Part shown: piece after piece, positions 1-42,708 of the stretch
Layout: each line of letters starts with the position of its first letter
Numbering within the stretch: position 1 is the first letter of the stretch
From: a virus
Reading direction: 5' to 3' (one strand)
DNA: 42,708 nt
IMG/VR virus record: IMGVR_UViG_3300036846_000868
Span: 1-42,708 of that record
The notes under the pieces: generated by a model
Seen by the model: only the letters and a program-made list of their open reading frames with translations
Database searches by the model: none
What the model was told of the DNA's origin: nothing
Translations under genes and position numbers: made by a program

Positions 1-144
1 GGGCAGCGTGTTGATCTCGAATGGCGTCGGCGCGGCGCCGTCGTGGGCCTCGTCGCTCACCCTGACCGGAAGTCTGACGGTCGGCGGCGCGCTCGCCTTC
101 AACGCGGCGAATCCGGTCGCGCATACGATCTACGGTACCGGGAC
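1..144. repeat. Terminal direct repeat, left copy (circular closure)
   Basis: Bases 1-144 match 42565-42708 at 143 of 144 positions. The single difference (G at 127, C at 42691) is a third-codon change, ACG to ACC, both threonine. Because the repeat lies inside one continuous tail-fibre reading frame, it is most simply the overlap of a circular or circularly permuted assembly. A physical terminal repeat is possible but less likely inside a coding region. Confidence 0.93.
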
Positions 145-20616: not shown

Positions 20617-22008
20617 ATGAGACATCGACAAACCGATCCCGTCGGTCAAGCGCTCGCCGCCGTCGAAGCCACGCTCCGCGTGCATACTGGCGCCGTCGTG
20701 CATCTGCGCGATGTGTATGACGCGAGCCAGCCGATCCCGCCCGATGATCGGGTCATCACCGTCCACGCGGGCGAAGACCTGCGCGGCATTCTGGAGCAGG
20801 CGCCAGCGGGCGCGGTCGTCGAGTGCGAACCGGCCACGTTTGAAGGGCCGTTCATCCTAACCAAAGCGGTTACGCTGCGCTCCACGACCATGCCCGACGG
20901 TCGTGCGGGGCTCGACATGCCGGTGTGGCTCACGTCGAACGCCGAGGACACGGTTAGCCTGCGCGGACCCGATCAGCGGCTCCTCGGGGTCGGAATCAAG
21001 AACACGAACCCCGATTACCAGCACCTCGCGATCACGCGAGAAGCGACGCGCACGCTGGTCGATCAGGTGTCGTGCCTCGGCGATCCGGTCTACGGCGGAC
21101 GGCGCGGCATCCGACCCGAAGGTACCGGCGTGATCATCCGGCGCTGCTACGTCGACTACATCGGCCGGCCGGGGCTCGAGACGCAGGCGATCTGCGGCGT
21201 CGTCGGTGGCCGCAACATCCTGATCGATGACAGCCATCTCGCGGGCGCGGCCGAAGCGGTTATGTTCGGCGGCGGCGACACGCCGTCATCCGACTTGACG
21301 CCGACCAACATTCGGATCACGCGCAGCACGCTCACGAAGCGGCCCGAGTGGTTCCAAATGGGCTGGCAAATCAAAAACGTCTTCGAGTTGAAAAACGCGC
21401 GCGGCGTCTACGTCGGTGACACCGTGATGCTGTACGCCGGGATGGCGGAAGGACAGGGCGCGTTCGATCAGGTCTACACCCCACGCAATCAGGACGGCGG
21501 ATCGCCGTGGGCGTGCGTCGAGGACGTGCTCATTGAGCGGTGTCGCTGCGAGATCGCGGGCGGCTGCCTCTCCCTAATGGGCAGCGACTACATGCACAAG
21601 AGCGAGATGCTGCGGAACATTACGATCCGCGACGTGTTGTTCGACCAGATCGATCCGTGGGGCATCACCGGAGGCAGCGGGAATTGCATCTATCTGCAGC
21701 GGGCGCCCGAGCATGTGACCATCGAGCGCGTGACGATTCGCGGCCAGCATCTCAACGCGGCGCTCTACTTCGGCCCCGACATGCCCCCGCCGTGGTGCGT
21801 GCTGCGCGACATCGTGGTGCCGCCAGAGTTCACCAACCAGCACGAGAACGATCCGTATCTGTGGAAGATCGACGGCGGCGGGCAGGGCGAGGCCGCCGTG
21901 CGCGCCTTCTGCACGTTCCCCGACGACCCGACGAAAAACATCGTCATCGAACGCGTCGGCACGCCCGACGCGGCCGGGGCAAGTGGGTATCCGGGAGAGA
22001 ATCGATGA
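20617..22008 (+). CDS. Right-handed parallel beta-helix protein
   Basis: A 463-residue protein with repeated short strands ending in N/D turns (GVIIRRCYVDYIG, NILIDDSHLAGA, NIRITRSTLTKR, VLIERCRCEIAGG, ITIRDVLFDQI, VTIERVTIRGQHL), the rung pattern of pectate-lyase-like helices. The phrases AVMFGGGDTPSSDLTPTNI and VFELKNARGVYVGD...TPRNQDG recall beta-helix proteins I associate with soil bacteria such as Acidobacteria. No signal peptide. Its place between an early unknown gene and a cold-shock gene, far from the tail genes, is unusual. It could be a spike, a polysaccharide-active enzyme or a cargo gene. Catalytic residues are not evident. Confidence 0.75.
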   Translation: MRHRQTDPVGQALAAVEATLRVHTGAVVHLRDVYDASQPIPPDDRVITVHAGEDLRGILEQAPAGAVVECEPATFEGPFILTKAVTLRSTTMPDGRAGLDMPVWLTSNAEDTVSLRGPDQRLLGVGIKNTNPDYQHLAITREATRTLVDQVSCLGDPVYGGRRGIRPEGTGVIIRRCYVDYIGRPGLETQAICGVVGGRNILIDDSHLAGAAEAVMFGGGDTPSSDLTPTNIRITRSTLTKRPEWFQMGWQIKNVFELKNARGVYVGDTVMLYAGMAEGQGAFDQVYTPRNQDGGSPWACVEDVLIERCRCEIAGGCLSLMGSDYMHKSEMLRNITIRDVLFDQIDPWGITGGSGNCIYLQRAPEHVTIERVTIRGQHLNAALYFGPDMPPPWCVLRDIVVPPEFTNQHENDPYLWKIDGGGQGEAAVRAFCTFPDDPTKNIVIERVGTPDAAGASGYPGENR

Positions 22009-22208
22009 CTGGCACGATCAAGTCGCTCAACGCACGGAAGGGATTCGGGTTCATTCGCGGCCTGGACTCCGTCGAGTACTTCTTCCATCGCAGCTCGCTG
22101 CAGAACGGACGCATCGAGGAGCTCGTCGAGGGACGTACGACCGTGACGTTCAAGTTCAGCCATGGGATGAAAGGGCCGCGCGCCGACGAGGTGTGGGTCG
22201 AGAAGTGA
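22005..22208 (+). CDS. csp: Cold-shock-domain protein
   Basis: A 67-residue single cold-shock domain: GTIKSLNARKGFGFI (RNP1 KGFGFI), EYFFHRSSL (RNP2-like) and a final strand ADEVWVEK. Start ATG 22005 overlaps the beta-helix stop by 4 bases. These OB-fold proteins bind single-stranded RNA or DNA; in phages they may melt mRNA structure in a GC-rich genome or antagonise host regulation. Confidence 0.9.
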   Translation: MTGTIKSLNARKGFGFIRGLDSVEYFFHRSSLQNGRIEELVEGRTTVTFKFSHGMKGPRADEVWVEK

Positions 22209-22478: not shown

Positions 22479-22877
22479 ATGATGCGCGTGCGCACCCGCA
22501 TCGGCCCGTCCGACATTCAGGGACTCGGCCTGTTTGCGCTGCAGCCGATCACTAAGGGCCAGACCGTGTGGGAGCTCGACGAGGATCTCGACCGCGTGTT
22601 GACCTACGCCGAGTATCGACGGCACCCGCCACTGGTCCGGCGCTGGATGAACCGGTTCGTGTATCAGAGCCGCACGTCGCGGGTCATCATCTTCTACAGC
22701 GACGACGCGCGGTTTATCAATCACCAACCGGTGGCCGTCGCGACGGTGCGCAGCATTCCGGACCGACTGAAGGTGGCGATCCGGGATATCGCGGTGGGGG
22801 AAGAGTTGACCGAGGACTACGACATCATCGAGCGCCCGCATTGGCATCCGTACACGCGCGCGGCCGAAGGACGGTGA
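22479..22877 (+). CDS. SET-domain protein, putative lysine methyltransferase
   Basis: A 132-residue protein with SDIQGLGLFALQPITKGQTVWEL (the GxG SAM-binding turn), DDARFINHQ (the NH motif, with Gln instead of the usual Ser), and IAVGEELTEDYD (the GEELT-DY strand-knot that houses the catalytic tyrosine). Order and length match small SET domains lacking separate pre- and post-SET zinc parts. Family members transfer methyl groups to lysine side chains. The likely target here would be a host or phage nucleoid, ribosomal or regulatory protein. ATG 22479 or 22482 could be the start. It overlaps the HNH gene that follows. Confidence 0.8.
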   Translation: MMRVRTRIGPSDIQGLGLFALQPITKGQTVWELDEDLDRVLTYAEYRRHPPLVRRWMNRFVYQSRTSRVIIFYSDDARFINHQPVAVATVRSIPDRLKVAIRDIAVGEELTEDYDIIERPHWHPYTRAAEGR

Positions 22878-23212: not shown

Positions 23213-23610
23213 GCTCTCGTACGCGTCGAGCGCGCGTAACTCTAACGAAGCGAACGACTTACGGTCGATTCCGCTATCGTATAGTAACGAAACGAGTTAC
23301 GACGAACGTCGCTAAGTCGAATCGAGAGAACGACTTACATGACTTGCGCCGGGTGGGGGGGATGCAAATCGCTGGAACCGCAACGGCGTCCGCAACCGTC
23401 CCGAGGTCGCTCACGTGCCCGCGAAATTCGGTAGGGGGTCGTTACAACCGGCTGCAAGGCGCTGCCGCGCGTTGTCGGAGGGGGGGGGTATATACCCCTA
23501 GCCGAACGTCGGGATCGCCTCGTACAGCGAACGGCAGGCTCGTTTCCAGCCGTTTGCGACTCGGTTCGGAGGGACGCCATGGAGCTCGGGCTGAAAAGTC
23601 GCCTCGATGA
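23209..23610 (+). CDS. Doubtful basic ORF after the HNH gene
   Basis: An in-frame ATG overlaps the HNH stop as ATGA, the usual coupling here, and the first 45 codons give a very basic protein (RTRRARVTLTKRTTYGRFRYR). After that the sequence has no coding character and runs 32 bases into the next gene. The DNA also carries regularly spaced repeats, so I think regulation is the more likely use. Confidence 0.2.
   Translation: MSSRTRRARVTLTKRTTYGRFRYRIVTKRVTTNVAKSNRENDLHDLRRVGGMQIAGTATASATVPRSLTCPRNSVGGRYNRLQGAAARCRRGGVYTPSRTSGSPRTANGRLVSSRLRLGSEGRHGARAEKSPR
23253..23338 (+). repeat. Three AACGA(C/G)TTAC repeats at 38-base spacing
   Basis: Copies at 23253-23262, 23291-23300 and 23329-23338. The 38-base interval is not a multiple of 3, arguing against a protein repeat, and is between 3.5 and 4 helical turns. 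The units resemble binding sites for a regulator or initiator. Confidence 0.7.
23485..23498. promoter_or_regulatory. Perfect 14-bp palindrome GGGGTATATACCCC
   Basis: A perfect palindrome at the end of a 9-G run, about 80 bases upstream of the PAPS-reductase-like gene. It could be an operator; the lack of a loop and U-run argues against a terminator. Confidence 0.5.
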
Positions 23611-24409
23611 TCAAGAACCGTGGCAGCGGTGCGCCGCGACCGCGTTGGACACCATCGACCGGGCGGCGTTCGACGACAAGGTGGCGCGGCTCATCGACGA
23701 GGTGCGTCAGGTCGCCAAGACGCAACGCGTCGGGTACGGCTGGTCCGGGGGGAAGGACTCGCAGGCGCTTCGCTGGATCATGGAGCAGGCCGGGGTCGAG
23801 CGGTCGGTGCTCGGCGTGACGCCCGACTTGGAATTTCCGGCGATGGTGCAGTGGTACGCGGCGCACATGCCGGAGGGCTGCGACGTGATCGAGCAACCGG
23901 CGTTCGATATGCGCTGGATCCGGGCCAACCCCGAGATGTTGTTTCCACGTGGAACACGGGGTACGGAGTGGTTCGGGGTCGCGCGGCGCTCGTGGCGGCA
24001 GTTCGCCAAATACGAACGGCTCCACGTGCTCGTGCTCGGCCGGCGTCGGAAGGACGACAACTACATCGGGCCCCCGGGCACCGACCGCTATCTCGACCGC
24101 GAGGGCGTGCTGCGCTGGTCGCCGCTCGGGCTGTGGACGCACGAAGAAGTCTTCGCGCTCATCGCGCAACAGCAGCTCGCGATGCCGCCGTGCTACGACT
24201 GGCCGCGCGGCTACGTAACGGGGACCGGCGCCTGGGCGTCGCGTGACGCCGTGTGGCAGAAGACGACGACCGACCCCGACCACCAACTGGCGCTCGACCG
24301 CGACCACGGCTTCGCGGAATGCTGGGCGATTGACGCCGACACAATTCGCGCAGCCGCCGACCGGCTCCCCGCCGCGCGCGAGTGGATGCAGCGACACGAA
24401 AAGGAGTGA
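23579..24409 (+). CDS. PAPS-reductase-like (adenine nucleotide alpha-hydrolase) protein
   Basis: A 276-residue protein with the PP-loop GWSGGKDSQALRW (SGGKDS at residues 56-61), then the VTPDLEFPAMVQWYAAHMPEG and LWTHEEVFALI blocks of the phosphoadenosine-phosphosulfate reductase superfamily. The classical C-terminal ECGLH cysteine is not found, so it is unlikely to reduce PAPS; activation of a substrate by adenylation, as in DndC-type or tRNA-thiolation enzymes, is more plausible. First gene of the 23579-28145 operon, after a regulatory-looking gap. Confidence 0.85.
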   Translation: MELGLKSRLDDQEPWQRCAATALDTIDRAAFDDKVARLIDEVRQVAKTQRVGYGWSGGKDSQALRWIMEQAGVERSVLGVTPDLEFPAMVQWYAAHMPEGCDVIEQPAFDMRWIRANPEMLFPRGTRGTEWFGVARRSWRQFAKYERLHVLVLGRRRKDDNYIGPPGTDRYLDREGVLRWSPLGLWTHEEVFALIAQQQLAMPPCYDWPRGYVTGTGAWASRDAVWQKTTTDPDHQLALDRDHGFAECWAIDADTIRAAADRLPAAREWMQRHEKE

Positions 24410-24411
24410 CG

Positions 24412-25077
24412 ATGACGAAGCCCACACCGACGACGACGACGACCACGGTTGACCAACTCAAGCCCGACCCGCACAACCGCCGCCGCCACACGCCGCGCAA
24501 TCTCGAGATGATCGGGGCGTCGCTCAAGGACGTCGGCGCCGCGCGCTCGATTGTGATTGACGAACACGACGAGGTCCTCGCGGGCAACGGCGTGCTCGAA
24601 GCGGCGCCGGGCGCGGGTATCTCGAAGGTGCAGATTGTCGAGGTCGAGGGCGACACGATCATCGCGGTGCGCCGCCGGGGACTCACCGACGCGCAAAAGC
24701 GCAACCTCGCGCTGTTCGACAACCGCGCGGCGGAGCTCGCCGAGTGGAATATCGACCAACTCGACGCCGATAAGCAGGCGGGGATCGACCTGAAGCCCTT
24801 CTGGACGCCCGAGGAGCTCGACGCGCTCGCCTCGAACGCGTCCGCTAACGACATCGTGCGCGCCGCGGCCGAGCCCGGAACCGAGCCCGAGGGCACGGCG
24901 GCGGTGACGACGGGCGACTTTCAGACGTTCTCGTGTCCGTTGACGGTCGATCAGGAGCGGACCGTGCGCGCCGCCTTGCGCGCCGCGCGGCGCATCTACT
25001 CGGTGACGACGGCCGGCGACGCGCTCACCAAGGCGCTCGAAGCGTGGAGCCTCGCCGCCGAAGCGAGCCACGCGTGA
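24412..25077 (+). CDS. ParB/Srx-fold nuclease-like protein
   Basis: A 221-residue protein starting at ATG 24412 with AAGGAG upstream. Residues 13-65 (VDQLKPDPHNRRRHTPRNLEMI, then VLAGNGVLEAA) match the ParB N-terminal/sulfiredoxin-like domain, with the GNG taking the place of the G-E/H-R nucleotide-binding turn. A helical middle (TDAQKRNLALFDNRAAELAEW) resembles ParB-like proteins next to phage DNA methyltransferases. The C-terminus is alanine-rich and helical. It lies between two PAPS-reductase-like genes and overlaps the second by GTGA. Confidence 0.85.
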   Translation: MTKPTPTTTTTTVDQLKPDPHNRRRHTPRNLEMIGASLKDVGAARSIVIDEHDEVLAGNGVLEAAPGAGISKVQIVEVEGDTIIAVRRRGLTDAQKRNLALFDNRAAELAEWNIDQLDADKQAGIDLKPFWTPEELDALASNASANDIVRAAAEPGTEPEGTAAVTTGDFQTFSCPLTVDQERTVRAALRAARRIYSVTTAGDALTKALEAWSLAAEASHA

Positions 25078-26228
25078 AAGCGATCATCCATAAGAAGCAC
25101 ACCGTCGACCGAAGCTGTCTGGAGCTCGCCCGCGAGCGTATCGCGTACCTCTTCGAGCACTTCGATCACGTCGTCGTGGCGTTCTCGGGCGGCAAGGATT
25201 CGACCGTCTGTCTCAACCTCGCGCTCGAACAGGCGCGCGCGCTGGGTCGGTTGCCGCTCGACGTGTACTCGTTCGATGAAGAGGCGATCCCGCCGGAGAC
25301 CGTCGACTACATGACGCGCGTCGCTGCGAACCCCGAGATTCGGTTCCGTTGGTTCTGTGTCCCCATCGAACATCGTAACGCCTGCTCCACGACCTCGACC
25401 TACTGGTACCCGTGGGAGCCCGAGGCGCGCGACCGCTGGGTCCGCGAGCTCCCGCCGACGGCGATTACCGACTACCCGGGGTTCACGCGCGCCGGGATTC
25501 GCGAGCAGATGCCCGCGATTTTCACCGCCGCCGACGGTACGCTCGCCAACATCATGGGCATCCGGGCGCTCGAAAGCCTCTCGCGCTACAGCGCCATCGC
25601 GATGAAGACCGGATTCCTCGCGTTCATGTCGCAGGCAGTCCTGCCGTACGGCAAGAACGCGTACCCGATCTACGACTGGACGTTGGAAGATGTGTGGCTC
25701 GCGCCGCTGCAACAGGGCTGGGACTACAACCGCGCCTACGACGTGATGGAAGCGTGCGGCGTCGCCCGCTTCGATCAGCGGTGCGCGCCCCCGTACGGCG
25801 AGCAGTCTATCCGGCGGCTCTTCACCTACAAGCTCTGTTGGCCGCACCTGTGGCAGAAGATGGTCGACCGTGTGCCAGGCGCCGCGACCGGCGCGCGCTA
25901 CGGACGGACCGACCTTTACGGCGTCGGCATCGAGAAGGACGACCTACCCGACGGCCTGACGTGGCGCGAGTGGACGATGGAAACGCTGCGGCTACTGCCG
26001 CCCGACAACCGGCGCGAAGCGGCCGGCGCGATCAAGGTCGGCATCAGCATCCATCGCAACCGCGCGGGCGCGACGACGCCGATTCCCGACGCCGTGCCGC
26101 ACCCGGTGTCCGGGTTCTGCTGGAAGACGCTGTACCTGCCCGCGAAGGTGGGCGGCAACAAGTTCGGGCGCATCTCGCAGAAAATCGCCAACCGCGCCAT
26201 CAAGGAGCGCCGCAAACATGGGCACTGA
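25074..26228 (+). CDS. ibrA-like: IbrA-like PAPS-reductase family protein (DUF3440-type)
   Basis: A 384-residue protein from a GTG that overlaps the preceding stop. SGGKDS lies at residues 38-43 (VVVAFSGGKDSTVCLNLALEQ), followed by FDEEAIPPETVDYM and FRWFCVPIEHRNACS. These phrases are characteristic of IbrA, the PAPS-reductase-like half of the IbrA/IbrB pair first described from an E. coli prophage-associated locus that activates Eib surface proteins. The C-terminal 100 residues (YGRTDLYGVGIEKDD...GFCWKTLYLPAKVGG) are an added domain, basic at the end. It is directly coupled to the IbrB-like gene. Confidence 0.87.
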   Translation: MKAIIHKKHTVDRSCLELARERIAYLFEHFDHVVVAFSGGKDSTVCLNLALEQARALGRLPLDVYSFDEEAIPPETVDYMTRVAANPEIRFRWFCVPIEHRNACSTTSTYWYPWEPEARDRWVRELPPTAITDYPGFTRAGIREQMPAIFTAADGTLANIMGIRALESLSRYSAIAMKTGFLAFMSQAVLPYGKNAYPIYDWTLEDVWLAPLQQGWDYNRAYDVMEACGVARFDQRCAPPYGEQSIRRLFTYKLCWPHLWQKMVDRVPGAATGARYGRTDLYGVGIEKDDLPDGLTWREWTMETLRLLPPDNRREAAGAIKVGISIHRNRAGATTPIPDAVPHPVSGFCWKTLYLPAKVGGNKFGRISQKIANRAIKERRKHGH

Positions 26229-26739
26229 CGGTCAGCCGATCAGCCGCGTCGAATGGGTGCCGGTAGACTCGCTCGCCGCCAACGACTACAACCCGAACAT
26301 GCAGCCGCCTCCGGAGTTTCGACTCCTGAAGATCAGCCTGCTCGAAGACGGGTGGACGCAGCCCATCGTCGTCTTCGATGACGGGAGCGGCGCGAAGCCC
26401 ATCATCGTCGACGGCGAGCATCGCTGGCGCGTCGTCCGCGAAGACGCCGATATCCGCGCGCGGACCGAGGGCCTCGTGCCCATCGTTCGAATCGTCAAGG
26501 AGCGGCGACACTTGATGATGTCCACGATTCGGCACAACCGCGCGCGCGGCGAACACACCGTCAAGCAGATGGCCGGCATCGTGCGCGAGCTCCTCGAAGC
26601 CGGGGAAGCGGTGGACGATATCTGCTTCCTGATGCAGATGGAGGTGGAAGAGGTCGAGCGGCTCGCCGACAGCGCCGGGATGCCGACGCGCGTCACCCGG
26701 GGGCTCAGCGACTACTCGAAAGGATGGGAACCGCGATGA
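26218..26739 (+). CDS. ibrB-like: IbrB-like ParB-domain protein
   Basis: A 173-residue protein with AAGGAG-type site before ATG 26218, overlapping IbrA by 11 bases. VEWVPVDSLAANDYNPN, SLLEDGWTQPIVV and IIVDGEHRWRVV (residues 11-72) form a compact ParB-type domain; IbrB proteins have this same order. HNRARGEHTVKQMAGIVREL then gives a helix-turn-helix-like part. Together with IbrA it is the second PAPS-like plus ParB-like pair in the operon. Confidence 0.87.
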   Translation: MGTDGQPISRVEWVPVDSLAANDYNPNMQPPPEFRLLKISLLEDGWTQPIVVFDDGSGAKPIIVDGEHRWRVVREDADIRARTEGLVPIVRIVKERRHLMMSTIRHNRARGEHTVKQMAGIVRELLEAGEAVDDICFLMQMEVEEVERLADSAGMPTRVTRGLSDYSKGWEPR

Positions 26740-28145
26740 ATCCCGACCACGTACGGGCCGTTCGCACCGCCGCGCAGTGCGTGACGCGCGATCTGTCGCT
26801 GGCGCTCATCGAGCAGCAGACACAGGAGGCCATTACTGCGACCGGGCGCGGGCTCGATCTGGCCGACGCCGACTTGTCGAATCTGGATTGTCGCGGGTTC
26901 AACCTGTCCTACGCCACGCTCAACCGCGCCGCGCTGCACGGCAGCAAGTTCGACGAGGCGGACCTGACCGCCGCGACGCTCATTTGTCCGGGGCTCGAGC
27001 GGACCTCCTTTCGGCGGGCGAACCTGCGCGGCGTCTACGTCCACGCGCTGGCCGCGCAAGTCTGCAACTTCGATGAGGCGAATCTCGATGCGATGCTCGA
27101 TGGCACTGGCTCGCTCTTCCACGGGTGCTCGATGAAAGGTACGTCGCTCGTCGGCGCGCGGCTGGCCGGCGCGACGTTCTATCAGTGCGACCTGAGCCGC
27201 GCGCATCTGTCGGGCGCGACGCTCCAAGGTGCCACGATCAACGAGTGCGTAATGACGAGCGCCGATCTGGATCGCACGGACGTCTCGCAGCTCACGATCA
27301 CGAAGTGCGTCATGACGTCCGTCTCGCTGGCGTGCGCGGCTGGCGACGGACTCGTCATCCAGCGACCGACAGCGGCGACGAATCTGACACTGACCGGCGC
27401 GTCGCTGCCCGGTCTTCGACTCGCCCATGTACGCACGCGCGGCCTCGTGGCGCTCGACCTCGCGGCCACCAACCTCGACATGGAGGATTGCTGGTGTAGA
27501 GATGCGACGTTTCATCGCGCGTCCCTCGGTAACGCGCGTATGGTGCATTGCACGTTCGAGACAACAACCTTCGAGAACGCCAAGCTAACGGGCGCGCAAC
27601 TGCGTAGCTGCGTCTTCGCGCGCGTCACGTTTGAGCGCGCCGACGGCGAGAATCTCAGCGCGGTCGAGACGTCGATGATTGCAGCGAATCTGACTAATTT
27701 CGCGGGACGCGCGGCCGTCTTCCGCGACTGCGACCTCACCGACGCGAACCTCTCGGGCGCGTATCTATACCGCGCGATGCTGACCGGCGATCCGCCCGCC
27801 GCCATGTCGCTCGTGCGCGCCTCGCTCAACGGCGCGAATCTCGTGCAGGCGTATATCGCCGCCGACTGTAGCCACGGCGATTGGCGCGGCGCGAAGTGCG
27901 CGTACGCGCGGCTGAATCAGGCGACGTTTCGGCGCGCGGACTTGTCCGGGGCGGGACTCTACGAGGCCTCGCTCGTTAAGACCAACTTCACCGACGCGCG
28001 CCTCGTGGGGGTACAGCCGCCGTTTTTTGCCGACCGCTGCGCCGGACTCGAAGCGGCGCTCTACGTGGTCGGCGCGCAGGCCGCGCTCGACTGTGTGCAG
28101 CGGGGGAAGGCGGTGACGAGTGTGGGAAGCTCGGGGTCGACGTGA
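26736..28145 (+). CDS. Pentapeptide-repeat protein
   Basis: A 469-residue protein built largely of A(D/N)LXX-type repeats (ADLSNLDCRGFNLSYATLNR, ANLRGVYVHA, ADLSGAGLYEASLVKTNF and many more), which fold as a right-handed quadrilateral beta-helix. Start ATG 26736 overlaps the IbrB stop as ATGA. Family members such as Qnr and MfpA mimic DNA and protect or inhibit gyrase; many others have no known role. Two or three less regular stretches interrupt the coil. Being the last gene of the PAPS/ParB operon, it may shield DNA or a topoisomerase, but no partner is shown by sequence. Confidence 0.88.
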   Translation: MNPDHVRAVRTAAQCVTRDLSLALIEQQTQEAITATGRGLDLADADLSNLDCRGFNLSYATLNRAALHGSKFDEADLTAATLICPGLERTSFRRANLRGVYVHALAAQVCNFDEANLDAMLDGTGSLFHGCSMKGTSLVGARLAGATFYQCDLSRAHLSGATLQGATINECVMTSADLDRTDVSQLTITKCVMTSVSLACAAGDGLVIQRPTAATNLTLTGASLPGLRLAHVRTRGLVALDLAATNLDMEDCWCRDATFHRASLGNARMVHCTFETTTFENAKLTGAQLRSCVFARVTFERADGENLSAVETSMIAANLTNFAGRAAVFRDCDLTDANLSGAYLYRAMLTGDPPAAMSLVRASLNGANLVQAYIAADCSHGDWRGAKCAYARLNQATFRRADLSGAGLYEASLVKTNFTDARLVGVQPPFFADRCAGLEAALYVVGAQAALDCVQRGKAVTSVGSSGST

Positions 28146-30015: not shown

Positions 30016-30068
30016 GTTGCTTCGTCTCTCTCTCGTGTGTCGGACGCTGAATGCGTCATCGACCGACC

Positions 30069-42382: not shown

Positions 42383-42708
42383 ATGGCGCAACTAGTCAAA
42401 CATCTCAAGAACAGCACCATCGCGGACGGGCCCGATCCAAATCAGGTTAACCCGTCGGACTGGAATGCGGCCCACGTGTTCTCGGGCGGCGCGCTCGGCG
42501 GATTGCTGATGCGCGACACCGGGGACGCGACGTACGGCGCGTCGTGGCTCGCGAGCGTCGCGGCGGGCAGCGTGTTGATCTCGAATGGCGTCGGCGCGGC
42601 GCCGTCGTGGGCCTCGTCGCTCACCCTGACCGGAAGTCTGACGGTCGGCGGCGCGCTCGCCTTCAACGCGGCGAATCCGGTCGCGCATACCATCTACGGT
42701 ACCGGGAC
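42383..42708 (+). CDS. Tail fibre, N-terminal part (continues at position 2)
   Basis: ATG 42383 opens MAQLVKHLKNSTIADGPDPN and QVNPSDWNAAHVFSGG, the usual N-terminal phage-attachment start of tail fibres (the NPSDWNAxHxFSG phrase). The frame stays open to the end of the window and matches the frame of 2-883, with a 144-base overlap between the two ends. The complete protein is 354 residues. It begins 4 bases after the preceding stop. Confidence 0.85.
   Translation, partial: MAQLVKHLKNSTIADGPDPNQVNPSDWNAAHVFSGGALGGLLMRDTGDATYGASWLASVAAGSVLISNGVGAAPSWASSLTLTGSLTVGGALAFNAANPVAHTIYGTG
42565..42708. repeat. Terminal direct repeat, right copy
   Basis: Matches 1-144 except for C at 42691 in place of G at 127. 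See the left copy. The synonymous difference suggests real sequence variation in the sampled population or a base-call error. Confidence 0.93.

What the first reader, a model, noticed from the sequence alone, without database searches (positions are those of the whole stretch)
23579..26739. Two successive PAPS-reductase-like + ParB-like pairs, the second an IbrA/IbrB pair
Four coupled genes alternate as PP-loop (SGGKDS) protein, ParB-domain protein, IbrA-like SGGKDS protein, IbrB-like ParB protein. Known: IbrA/IbrB were described as activators of Eib surface proteins in an E. coli prophage-associated locus, and PP-loop plus ParB-like partners occur in DNA phosphorothioation systems (DndC, DndB; SspD, SspB). 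Seen: both pairs are intact and tightly overlapped, and the first PP-loop protein lacks an ECGLH-type end. Inference: the operon might activate and transfer sulfur or adenylate to nucleic acid, modify host or phage DNA, or alter host surface gene expression. A duplicated pair in one operon makes a two-step or two-substrate system likely.
Basis: partly seen in the sequence, partly recalled or inferred. Interest (0 to 1): 0.78.

Follow-up and report, generated by a model that had tools for sequence, protein, structure and literature searches.

The report
Conserved four-gene phage operon around IbrA/IbrB
Four neighbouring genes in this bacterial virus form a co-inherited operon, found in many unrelated viruses together with small-molecule transport or metabolism genes, and it most likely makes an unknown chemical change to DNA; I found no description of it as a system.

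Summary
Four intact, overlapping genes lie at 23579-26739: PP1 (PP-loop), ParB1, IbrA (PP-loop + DUF3440), IbrB (ParB fold). They are a real unit: 122 of 128 PP1 homologue loci with enough flank also carry ParB1, IbrA and IbrB, in this order in 107 of 125, beside at least six different terminase clusters. It is not a duplicated pair: PP1 and IbrA are different PP-loop families, and sets without PP1 exist. The hierarchy is nested: IbrA-IbrB core, then ParB1, then optional PP1. New here: in relatives the set is usually joined by one of several alternative small-molecule genes: an SSS-type symporter (74-75 of 76 viral loci of this subfamily carry ParB1, IbrA, IbrB), a two-domain cupin (68 of 68 carry IbrA), or cupin plus glutamine amidotransferase. 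The window lacks these. The PAPS-reductase cysteine motif is absent (0/151, 0/228), the DndC model is not met, and 0/40 records encode a cysteine-desulfurase-family gene, so sulfate reduction is very unlikely and phosphorothioation unlikely. Best reading (about 0.45): ATP-driven adenylation chemistry on phage DNA, guided by ParB-fold NTPases. Chemistry and target are inferred. The gene families are known; the system appears undescribed.

The parts
23213..23578 (+). Gap upstream of PP1, between an HNH gene and PP1; probable leader of the operon, with a GGAGGG ribosome-binding-like sequence just before the ATG. No sigma-70-like site found.
23579..24409 (+). PP1: PP-loop protein (276 aa), PAPS-reductase-like fold, phrog_424-related; WSGGKDS and GRRxxD motifs; no ECGLH cysteine
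   Evidence: AF2 mean pLDDT 90.8; Foldseek: PAPS/APS reductases, TtuA, GMP synthetase, FAD synthase
24406..25077 (+). ParB1: ParB/sulfiredoxin-fold protein (223 aa from GTG 24406; ATG 24412 also possible), phrog_620-like, related to the ParB domain of phage DNA methyltransferases (phrog_498); AGNG in place of DGxHR
25074..26228 (+). IbrA: PP-loop protein (384 aa), PAPS_reduct + DUF3440; FSGGKDS, DEE, GIRALESLSR; one nearly invariant cysteine (C95)
   Evidence: (closest solved sequences: CysD, FAD synthase)
26218..26739 (+). IbrB: ParB-fold protein (173 aa) with intact DGxHR (DGEHR) and HNRARGxH motifs
26736..28145 (+). Pentapeptide-repeat protein, 4-nt overlap with the IbrB stop; not conserved at this place in the relatives, so probably a window-specific rider

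Best explanation
The four genes are one co-inherited phage operon, an expanded form of the IbrA-IbrB pair. Most likely it chemically modifies the phage's own DNA late in infection, before packaging. Proposed steps. (1) IbrA, and where present PP1, use ATP and their PP-loop to adenylate either an oxygen of the target or an acid/anion donor. (2) IbrB, a ParB/sulfiredoxin-fold NTPase with an intact DGxHR site, and ParB1, which lacks that motif, bind or scan DNA and couple NTP use to the transfer. (3) A nucleophile or small group replaces AMP. In relatives, alternative genes beside the cassette (symporter; cupins; glutamine amidotransferase; dehydrogenases) would import or prepare that group. The window encodes none of these and would draw on the host pool. 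Shown: gene content, order, intact motifs, predicted folds of PP1 and IbrA, co-inheritance, alternative companions. Inferred: DNA as the target, adenylation of target or donor, the donor role of the companions, timing.
For: Co-inheritance: 122/128 PP1 loci carry all three others; order kept in 107/125 beside at least six TerL clusters; the PP1 set has 63 sequences after 70% dereplication. Reciprocal: IbrA loci 46/46 with IbrB; viral SSS-symporter loci 74 IbrA, 75 IbrB, 74 ParB1 of 76; viral bicupin loci 68 IbrA, 66 IbrB, 61 ParB1 of 68. DNA link: a TerL cluster lies within 5 kb downstream in 103/111, median 876 bp; ParB1 and IbrB resemble the ParB domain of phage DNA methyltransferases (phrog_498, E 3e-20 and 3e-13); in IbrA-IbrB-only phages an SNF2-type helicase often sits directly upstream of IbrA; Fusobacterium phage phiFN37 carries IbrA-IbrB-helicase and, nearby, a ParB gene overlapping one annotated as queuine tRNA-ribosyltransferase. 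Chemistry: PP1 and IbrA folds match adenylate-forming PP-loop enzymes; IbrA keeps GxRxxESxxR in 225/228; IbrB keeps DGxHR in 220/220; actinobacterial-type loci put a class-II glutamine amidotransferase between PP1 and IbrA. Precedent: PMC12783734 shows a phage pathway in which an asparagine-synthetase-like ligase amidates a modified cytosine in DNA, with ParB-domain genes common in such contigs.
Against: No modified nucleoside has been measured. No gene for a pre-modified base is consistently present (thymidylate synthase 0/40, C5-methylase 5/40 above cut-off, N6/N4-methylase 1/40). The window lacks the transporter, cupin and amidotransferase. Transporter, cupin and dehydrogenases equally suit a metabolic role. 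ParB fold alone does not prove DNA binding. Neither PP1 nor IbrA has a close homologue of solved structure.
Confidence: 0.45

Rival explanations
1. Metabolic cargo: the cassette and its transporter/cupin/dehydrogenase companions scavenge or activate a small molecule (organic acid, urea-like compound, sugar acid) for the infected cell or lysogen; the ParB-fold proteins act as small-molecule kinases like SerK or sulfiredoxin, not on DNA.
For: SSS symporter directly upstream of PP1 in 91/126 and another unnamed protein (c35) in 11; PP1 start within 30 nt of the symporter stop in 57/62; the symporter's closest solved relative is the urea transporter DUR3; L005, a close relative of the window, has a 3-dehydro-L-gulonate 2-dehydrogenase-like gene between PP1 and ParB1; TctC solute receptor in L091-L093; aldehyde dehydrogenase in actinobacterial-type loci. 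Published annotations call these genes host metabolism (PMC11318856).
Against: The companion chemistry differs between phages while ParB1-IbrA-IbrB stays; position at the packaging genes; SNF2 helicases in place of the metabolic genes in other IbrA-IbrB phages; the window has no such companion.
Confidence: 0.22
2. Phosphorothioation-like system: PP1/IbrA insert sulfur into DNA, as DndC does, with ParB-fold partners like DndB.
For: Weak DndC/BrxP profile hits of IbrA, for DndC around the PP-loop only; one nearly invariant cysteine, C95, in IbrA (97%); ParB-like ATPases accompany Dnd systems (PMC12839542).
Against: DndC model scores 20 bits against a cut-off of 290; no invariant cysteine in PP1; no cysteine-desulfurase-family gene in 40 records incl. 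the window, although a host enzyme could serve.
Confidence: 0.1
3. Regulator: as proposed for the E. coli IbrA/IbrB pair, the proteins activate expression of host or prophage surface genes.
For: The pair is homologous to that annotated IbrA/IbrB in Escherichia phage PhiR5_2 (31% over 349 and 39% over 168 residues); the E. coli pair was reported to activate prophage eib genes (title of Sandt et al. 2002, seen in a reference list).
Against: Conserved enzyme motifs in nearly all members; association with metabolic genes and helicases; any regulatory effect could be secondary to a nucleic-acid modification.
Confidence: 0.1
4. RNA (tRNA) modification or an anti-defence nucleotide-altering enzyme set rather than DNA.
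For: Foldseek neighbours include tRNA thiolases and TilS.
Against: Same fold, low identity; ParB fold, SNF2 helicase and terminase neighbours point to DNA; no dedicated RNA-binding domain found.
Confidence: 0.1

Closest known systems
IbrA/IbrB pair (COG3969/DUF3440 PP-loop + ParB-like), E. coli and many phages
   Same: Genes three and four are homologous, in the same order and overlapping (31% and 39% identity to the pair annotated in Escherichia phage PhiR5_2)
   Different: Here the pair is embedded with ParB1 and PP1; no surface-gene target known; the E. coli phage pair has neither ParB1 nor PP1 among the annotated features shown around it
CmoX/CmoY phage cytosine hypermodification (PMC12783734)
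   Same: A phage-encoded adenylate-forming (asparagine-synthetase-like) ligase, ParB-domain genes in many contigs, some ligases with a glutamine-amidase domain; acts on phage DNA
   Different: PP1 and IbrA give no asparagine-synthetase Pfam hit; no C5 (carboxy)methyltransferase in the window, C5-methylase above cut-off in only 5/40 records
Dnd/BREX type 4 DNA phosphorothioation (DndC, BrxP; DndB)
   Same: PAPS-reductase-like PP-loop protein plus ParB-fold protein
   Different: DndC model not met, no cysteine desulfurase family gene in 40 records
Dpd 7-deazaguanine DNA system (DpdA TGT + DpdB ParB-like ATPase)
   Same: Logic of a base-modifying enzyme with a ParB-like ATPase partner
   Different: No TGT gene identified in the window; PP-loop enzymes instead
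CysH (PAPS reductase) / CysD (ATP sulfurylase)
   Same: Fold and PP-loop; the IbrA profile is closest to CysD and FAD synthase among solved sequences
   Different: No ECGLH cysteine; extra C-terminal DUF3440; ParB partners

Membership tests
IbrA/IbrB | DUF3440-type PP-loop protein above family cut-off | tested here: met
   DUF3440 51.6 bits vs 25; PAPS_reduct 36 vs 22.5
IbrA/IbrB | Adjacent ParB-fold partner with DGxHR | tested here: met
   ParB_N 30.3 vs 26.3 bits; DGEHR; 220/220 family members keep DGxHR
IbrA/IbrB | Activation of prophage surface (eib) genes | not testable with these tools
   needs transcription experiments
PAPS reductase (CysH) | PP-loop and CysH-like fold | tested here: met
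   SGGKDS; AF2 + Foldseek
PAPS reductase (CysH) | C-terminal catalytic cysteine in ECGLH | tested here: not met
   0/151 PP1 and 0/228 IbrA homologues; absent in both window proteins
DndC phosphorothioation | DndC equivalog model above cut-off | tested here: not met
   TIGR03183 20 bits vs 290.4 for IbrA; PP1 no hit
DndC phosphorothioation | Encoded sulfur supply (cysteine desulfurase) | tested here: inconclusive
   PF00266 0/40 records incl. window; a host enzyme could serve
ParB chromosome/plasmid partition | Curated ParB family model (e.g. TIGR00180) match | tested here: not met
   No NCBIfam family at E <= 0.001 for ParB1 or IbrB
ParB chromosome/plasmid partition | ParA partner next to the gene | not tested
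   No ParA was named among neighbours, but no dedicated ParA search was run
CmoX/CmoY hypermodification | C5 cytosine (carboxy)methyltransferase | tested here: not met
   PF00145 absent in window; above cut-off in 5/40 records
CmoX/CmoY hypermodification | Asparagine-synthetase-like ligase | tested here: not met
   Pfam gives only PAPS_reduct/DUF3440
CmoX/CmoY hypermodification | Accompanying ParBc-domain protein | tested here: met
   IbrB PF02195
Phage DNA hypermodification in general | Non-canonical nucleoside in virion DNA | not testable with these tools
   needs LC-MS or native sequencing

The most novel reading that the evidence does not exclude
A new, widespread class of phage DNA hypermodification built on an IbrA-IbrB-ParB1(-PP1) adenylation core acting on ordinary bases, in which each phage brings its own module for the attached group, in many gut phages a symporter that imports the precursor from outside the cell. 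That would be a DNA modification whose chemistry depends on an imported metabolite.
Probability: 0.22. Interest if true: 0.87.

Novelty: new variant of a known kind. Interest (0 to 1): 0.62.

Why it matters
These genes are routinely annotated one by one as 'PAPS reductase' auxiliary metabolic genes and 'ParB partition' proteins. The data say both labels are probably wrong and that they belong to one operon in phages and prophages of gut Clostridia, Bacteroidetes, actinobacteria and others. A phage operon that couples adenylating enzymes, ParB-fold NTPases and a dedicated symporter or cupin has no described counterpart in the papers searched. If it modifies DNA, it is a new route around restriction and a new source of DNA-modifying enzymes. 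If it is metabolic, it overturns the assumption that such phage genes serve sulfate assimilation. Either way it makes the old puzzle of what IbrA/IbrB does testable, because isolates carrying the full set exist in culture collections.

Tried and rejected
Duplicate-pair reading: rejected; profile comparison of PP1 and IbrA aligns only 88 columns, and ParB1/IbrB are related only at fold level. Sulfate-assimilation AMG: rejected for lack of the CysH cysteine motif. Mirror-tree correlation: core genes correlate at 0.73-0.93, but terminase and portal genes correlate about as well in most comparisons, so it does not discriminate; retention beside different terminase clusters was used instead. Search for a pre-modified base pathway (PF00145, PF00303, PF01555): nothing consistent, and no matched control of phages without the cassette. 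Cupin by sequence profile against PDB: only weak generic cupins. NCBIfam for cupins and amidotransferase: no hit. Rfam, tRNA, promoter and terminator scans: nothing. Paper searches found no description of the four-gene set. Iyer et al. 2013 (NAR) is not held.
Full report
What is there. The window is a 42,708-base virus record of 66% G+C. Its first and last 144 bases match at 143 of 144 positions, so it is probably a complete, circularly permuted genome. Four genes on the + strand at 23579-26739 are intact and overlap by 4, 4 and 11 nt: PP1 (276 aa), ParB1 (223 aa), IbrA (384 aa), IbrB (173 aa). A pentapeptide-repeat gene overlaps the IbrB stop by 4 nt, so the overlapping run continues into it. 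Upstream lies a 366-bp gap after an HNH gene. In this genome the terminase small and large subunit genes start at 30051 and about 30.9 kb.

Families. PP1 is a weak PAPS_reduct match, IbrA is PAPS_reduct plus DUF3440, IbrB is ParB_N, and ParB1 is seen only by phage ParB profiles. No curated NCBIfam cut-off is met by any of the four. Predicted structures of PP1 (mean pLDDT 90.8) and IbrA (88.7) are PP-loop folds; nearest solved structures are PAPS/APS reductases, FAD synthase, TtuA and GMP synthetase for PP1, and CysH, FAD synthase and CysD for IbrA. By sequence profile IbrA is closest to CysD and FAD synthase, which are adenylyltransferases. The PP-loop is conserved (PP1 148/151, IbrA 220/228 with S[GA]GKD[ST]); IbrB keeps DGxHR in 220/220; ParB1 never has it. 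The ECGLH catalytic motif of PAPS reductase is in 0/151 PP1 and 0/228 IbrA proteins, and PP1 has no invariant cysteine.

Is it a unit? Searching public viral and genome contigs with PP1 gave 142 loci. Of 128 with at least 3.5 kb downstream, 122 carry ParB1, IbrA and IbrB nearby. The order PP1-ParB1-IbrA-IbrB holds in 107 of 125 sets; seven more are PP1-ParB1-IbrB-IbrA (those with a named host are Bacteroidetes contigs, e.g. L208-L211) and six ParB1-PP1-IbrA-IbrB. The sets lie next to at least six distinct terminase clusters, so the operon is kept while the packaging module differs. PP1 comprises 63 sequences after 70% dereplication, so redundancy does not explain this. The genome hits are mostly Clostridia, with Bacteroidetes and actinobacteria. 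A TerL cluster lies downstream within 5 kb in 103 of 111, median 876 bp.

It is nested, not duplicated. Searching with IbrA, IbrB was present in 46 of 46 loci with enough flank, ParB1 in 26 and PP1 in 5 (flank limited to 6 kb). Sixteen viral loci read symporter-ParB1-IbrA-IbrB; in those inspected there is no gene where PP1 would be. Thus IbrA-IbrB is the invariant pair, ParB1 joins it in a large subset, and PP1 is an addition seen almost only with the other three. PP1 and IbrA align as profiles over only 88 columns.

The unexpected companions. Clustering neighbours and scanning them showed alternative small-molecule genes. (a) A sodium:solute symporter directly upstream of PP1 in 91 of 126 loci, and another protein of unknown family (c35, no Pfam hit, membrane-like by eye) in 11; the PP1 start lies within 30 nt of the symporter stop in 57 of 62. 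The symporter's best solved relative is the urea transporter DUR3; no curated subfamily cut-off is met, so its substrate is unknown. (b) A two-domain cupin with an almost invariant HTHP core between ParB1 and IbrA. (c) In actinobacterial-type loci a single cupin and a class-II glutamine amidotransferase, in some an aldehyde dehydrogenase. (d) In L005, whose PP1 is 58-60% identical to the window's, an Ldh_2 dehydrogenase close to 3-dehydro-L-gulonate 2-dehydrogenase (311.6 vs 316 cut-off), and a SET-domain protein as in the window. (e) A TctC solute receptor in L091-L093. Reciprocal searches show how tight this is: of 76 viral loci of the symporter subfamily with room downstream, 74 have IbrA, 75 IbrB and 74 ParB1; of 68 bicupin loci, all have IbrA, 66 IbrB and 61 ParB1. 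Symporter and bicupin were not found together in one locus. The window itself has none of them.

Other contexts of IbrA-IbrB. Phages without ParB1/PP1 often have an SNF2-type helicase directly upstream of IbrA, and some a GNAT acetyltransferase between IbrA and IbrB. Fusobacterium phage phiFN37 has IbrA-IbrB-helicase and, about 3 kb on, a ParB gene overlapping one annotated as queuine tRNA-ribosyltransferase (Pfam did not confirm the fragment read here). Mycobacterium phage GlenHope has ParB, two small genes, PAPS-like, ParB, terminase at its left end.

How it most likely works. PP-loop enzymes make an adenylated intermediate (established knowledge of the superfamily). ParB-fold proteins bind and use NTPs, not only CTP (PMC12704722), and ParB-like ATPases accompany DNA-modification systems (DndB, DpdB; PMC12839542). 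A published phage pathway uses an asparagine-synthetase-like ligase to amidate carboxymethylcytosine in DNA, with ParB-domain genes in many contigs and glutamine-amidase versions (PMC12783734). The simplest joint reading is adenylation-driven modification of phage DNA, with ParB1/IbrB as NTP-dependent DNA-handling partners and the companion genes as donor supply. No pre-modified base pathway is consistently present: thymidylate synthase 0/40, C5-methylase above cut-off 5/40, N6/N4-methylase 1/40, so an ordinary base would be the substrate. DNA as target is an inference; a purely metabolic role is the strongest rival.

What it is not, on tests. Not a PAPS reductase (cysteine motif absent), not DndC (20 vs 290 bits), and no cysteine desulfurase family gene in 40 records. 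Neither ParB protein matches a curated partition-ParB model.

Known or new. IbrA/IbrB and the single families are known; a 2024 study lists phrog_424 and phrog_2302 genes as orfs 40 and 42 of a Clostridium clostridioforme prophage and files them under host metabolism (PMC11318856). In eight searches of the open library I found no description of the four-gene set or of its symporter and cupin companions; subscription papers and preprints were not searchable, so novelty is not proved.

Limits. Gene calls in relatives are mechanical ORFs with profiles seeded from the window and iterated; thresholds were 40-100 bits. Loci from capped searches are the best 80 per query, not a census. Flank limits undercount. 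No matched control set of phages was available for the methylase counts.

Noticed in passing
window 1-144 and 42565-42708: Ends match at 143 of 144 bases: the record is probably a complete circular or circularly permuted genome.
   Followed up: partly
window 22479-22877: SET-domain protein (Pfam SET 39 bits) upstream of the operon; the relative L005 carries a SET protein (45 bits) beside its ParB1. Unusual in a phage.
   Followed up: partly
window 26736-28145: Long pentapeptide-repeat protein whose start overlaps the IbrB stop; absent at this place in the relatives. Could be a DNA mimic.
   Followed up: no
window 22002-22208: Cold-shock-domain protein upstream of the SET gene.
   Followed up: no
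window 20617-22008: 463-aa protein that reads like a beta-helix/pectate-lyase repeat, lying among DNA-metabolism genes; no Pfam hit.
   Followed up: no
L142 7309-7722; also L147, L154, L159, L161: GNAT acetyltransferase gene inserted between IbrA and IbrB in several phages.
   Followed up: partly
L231 (Fusobacterium phage phiFN37) 4998-10993: IbrA-IbrB-helicase followed nearby by a ParB gene overlapping one annotated as queuine tRNA-ribosyltransferase.
   Followed up: partly
L011 11358-15543: Three consecutive IbrA-family genes in one actinobacterial-type locus (two in L006 and L029).
   Followed up: no
40 virus records with the cassette: N6/N4 DNA methylase (PF01555) found in only 1 of 40, which seems low for phages; no matched control was run.
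   Followed up: no
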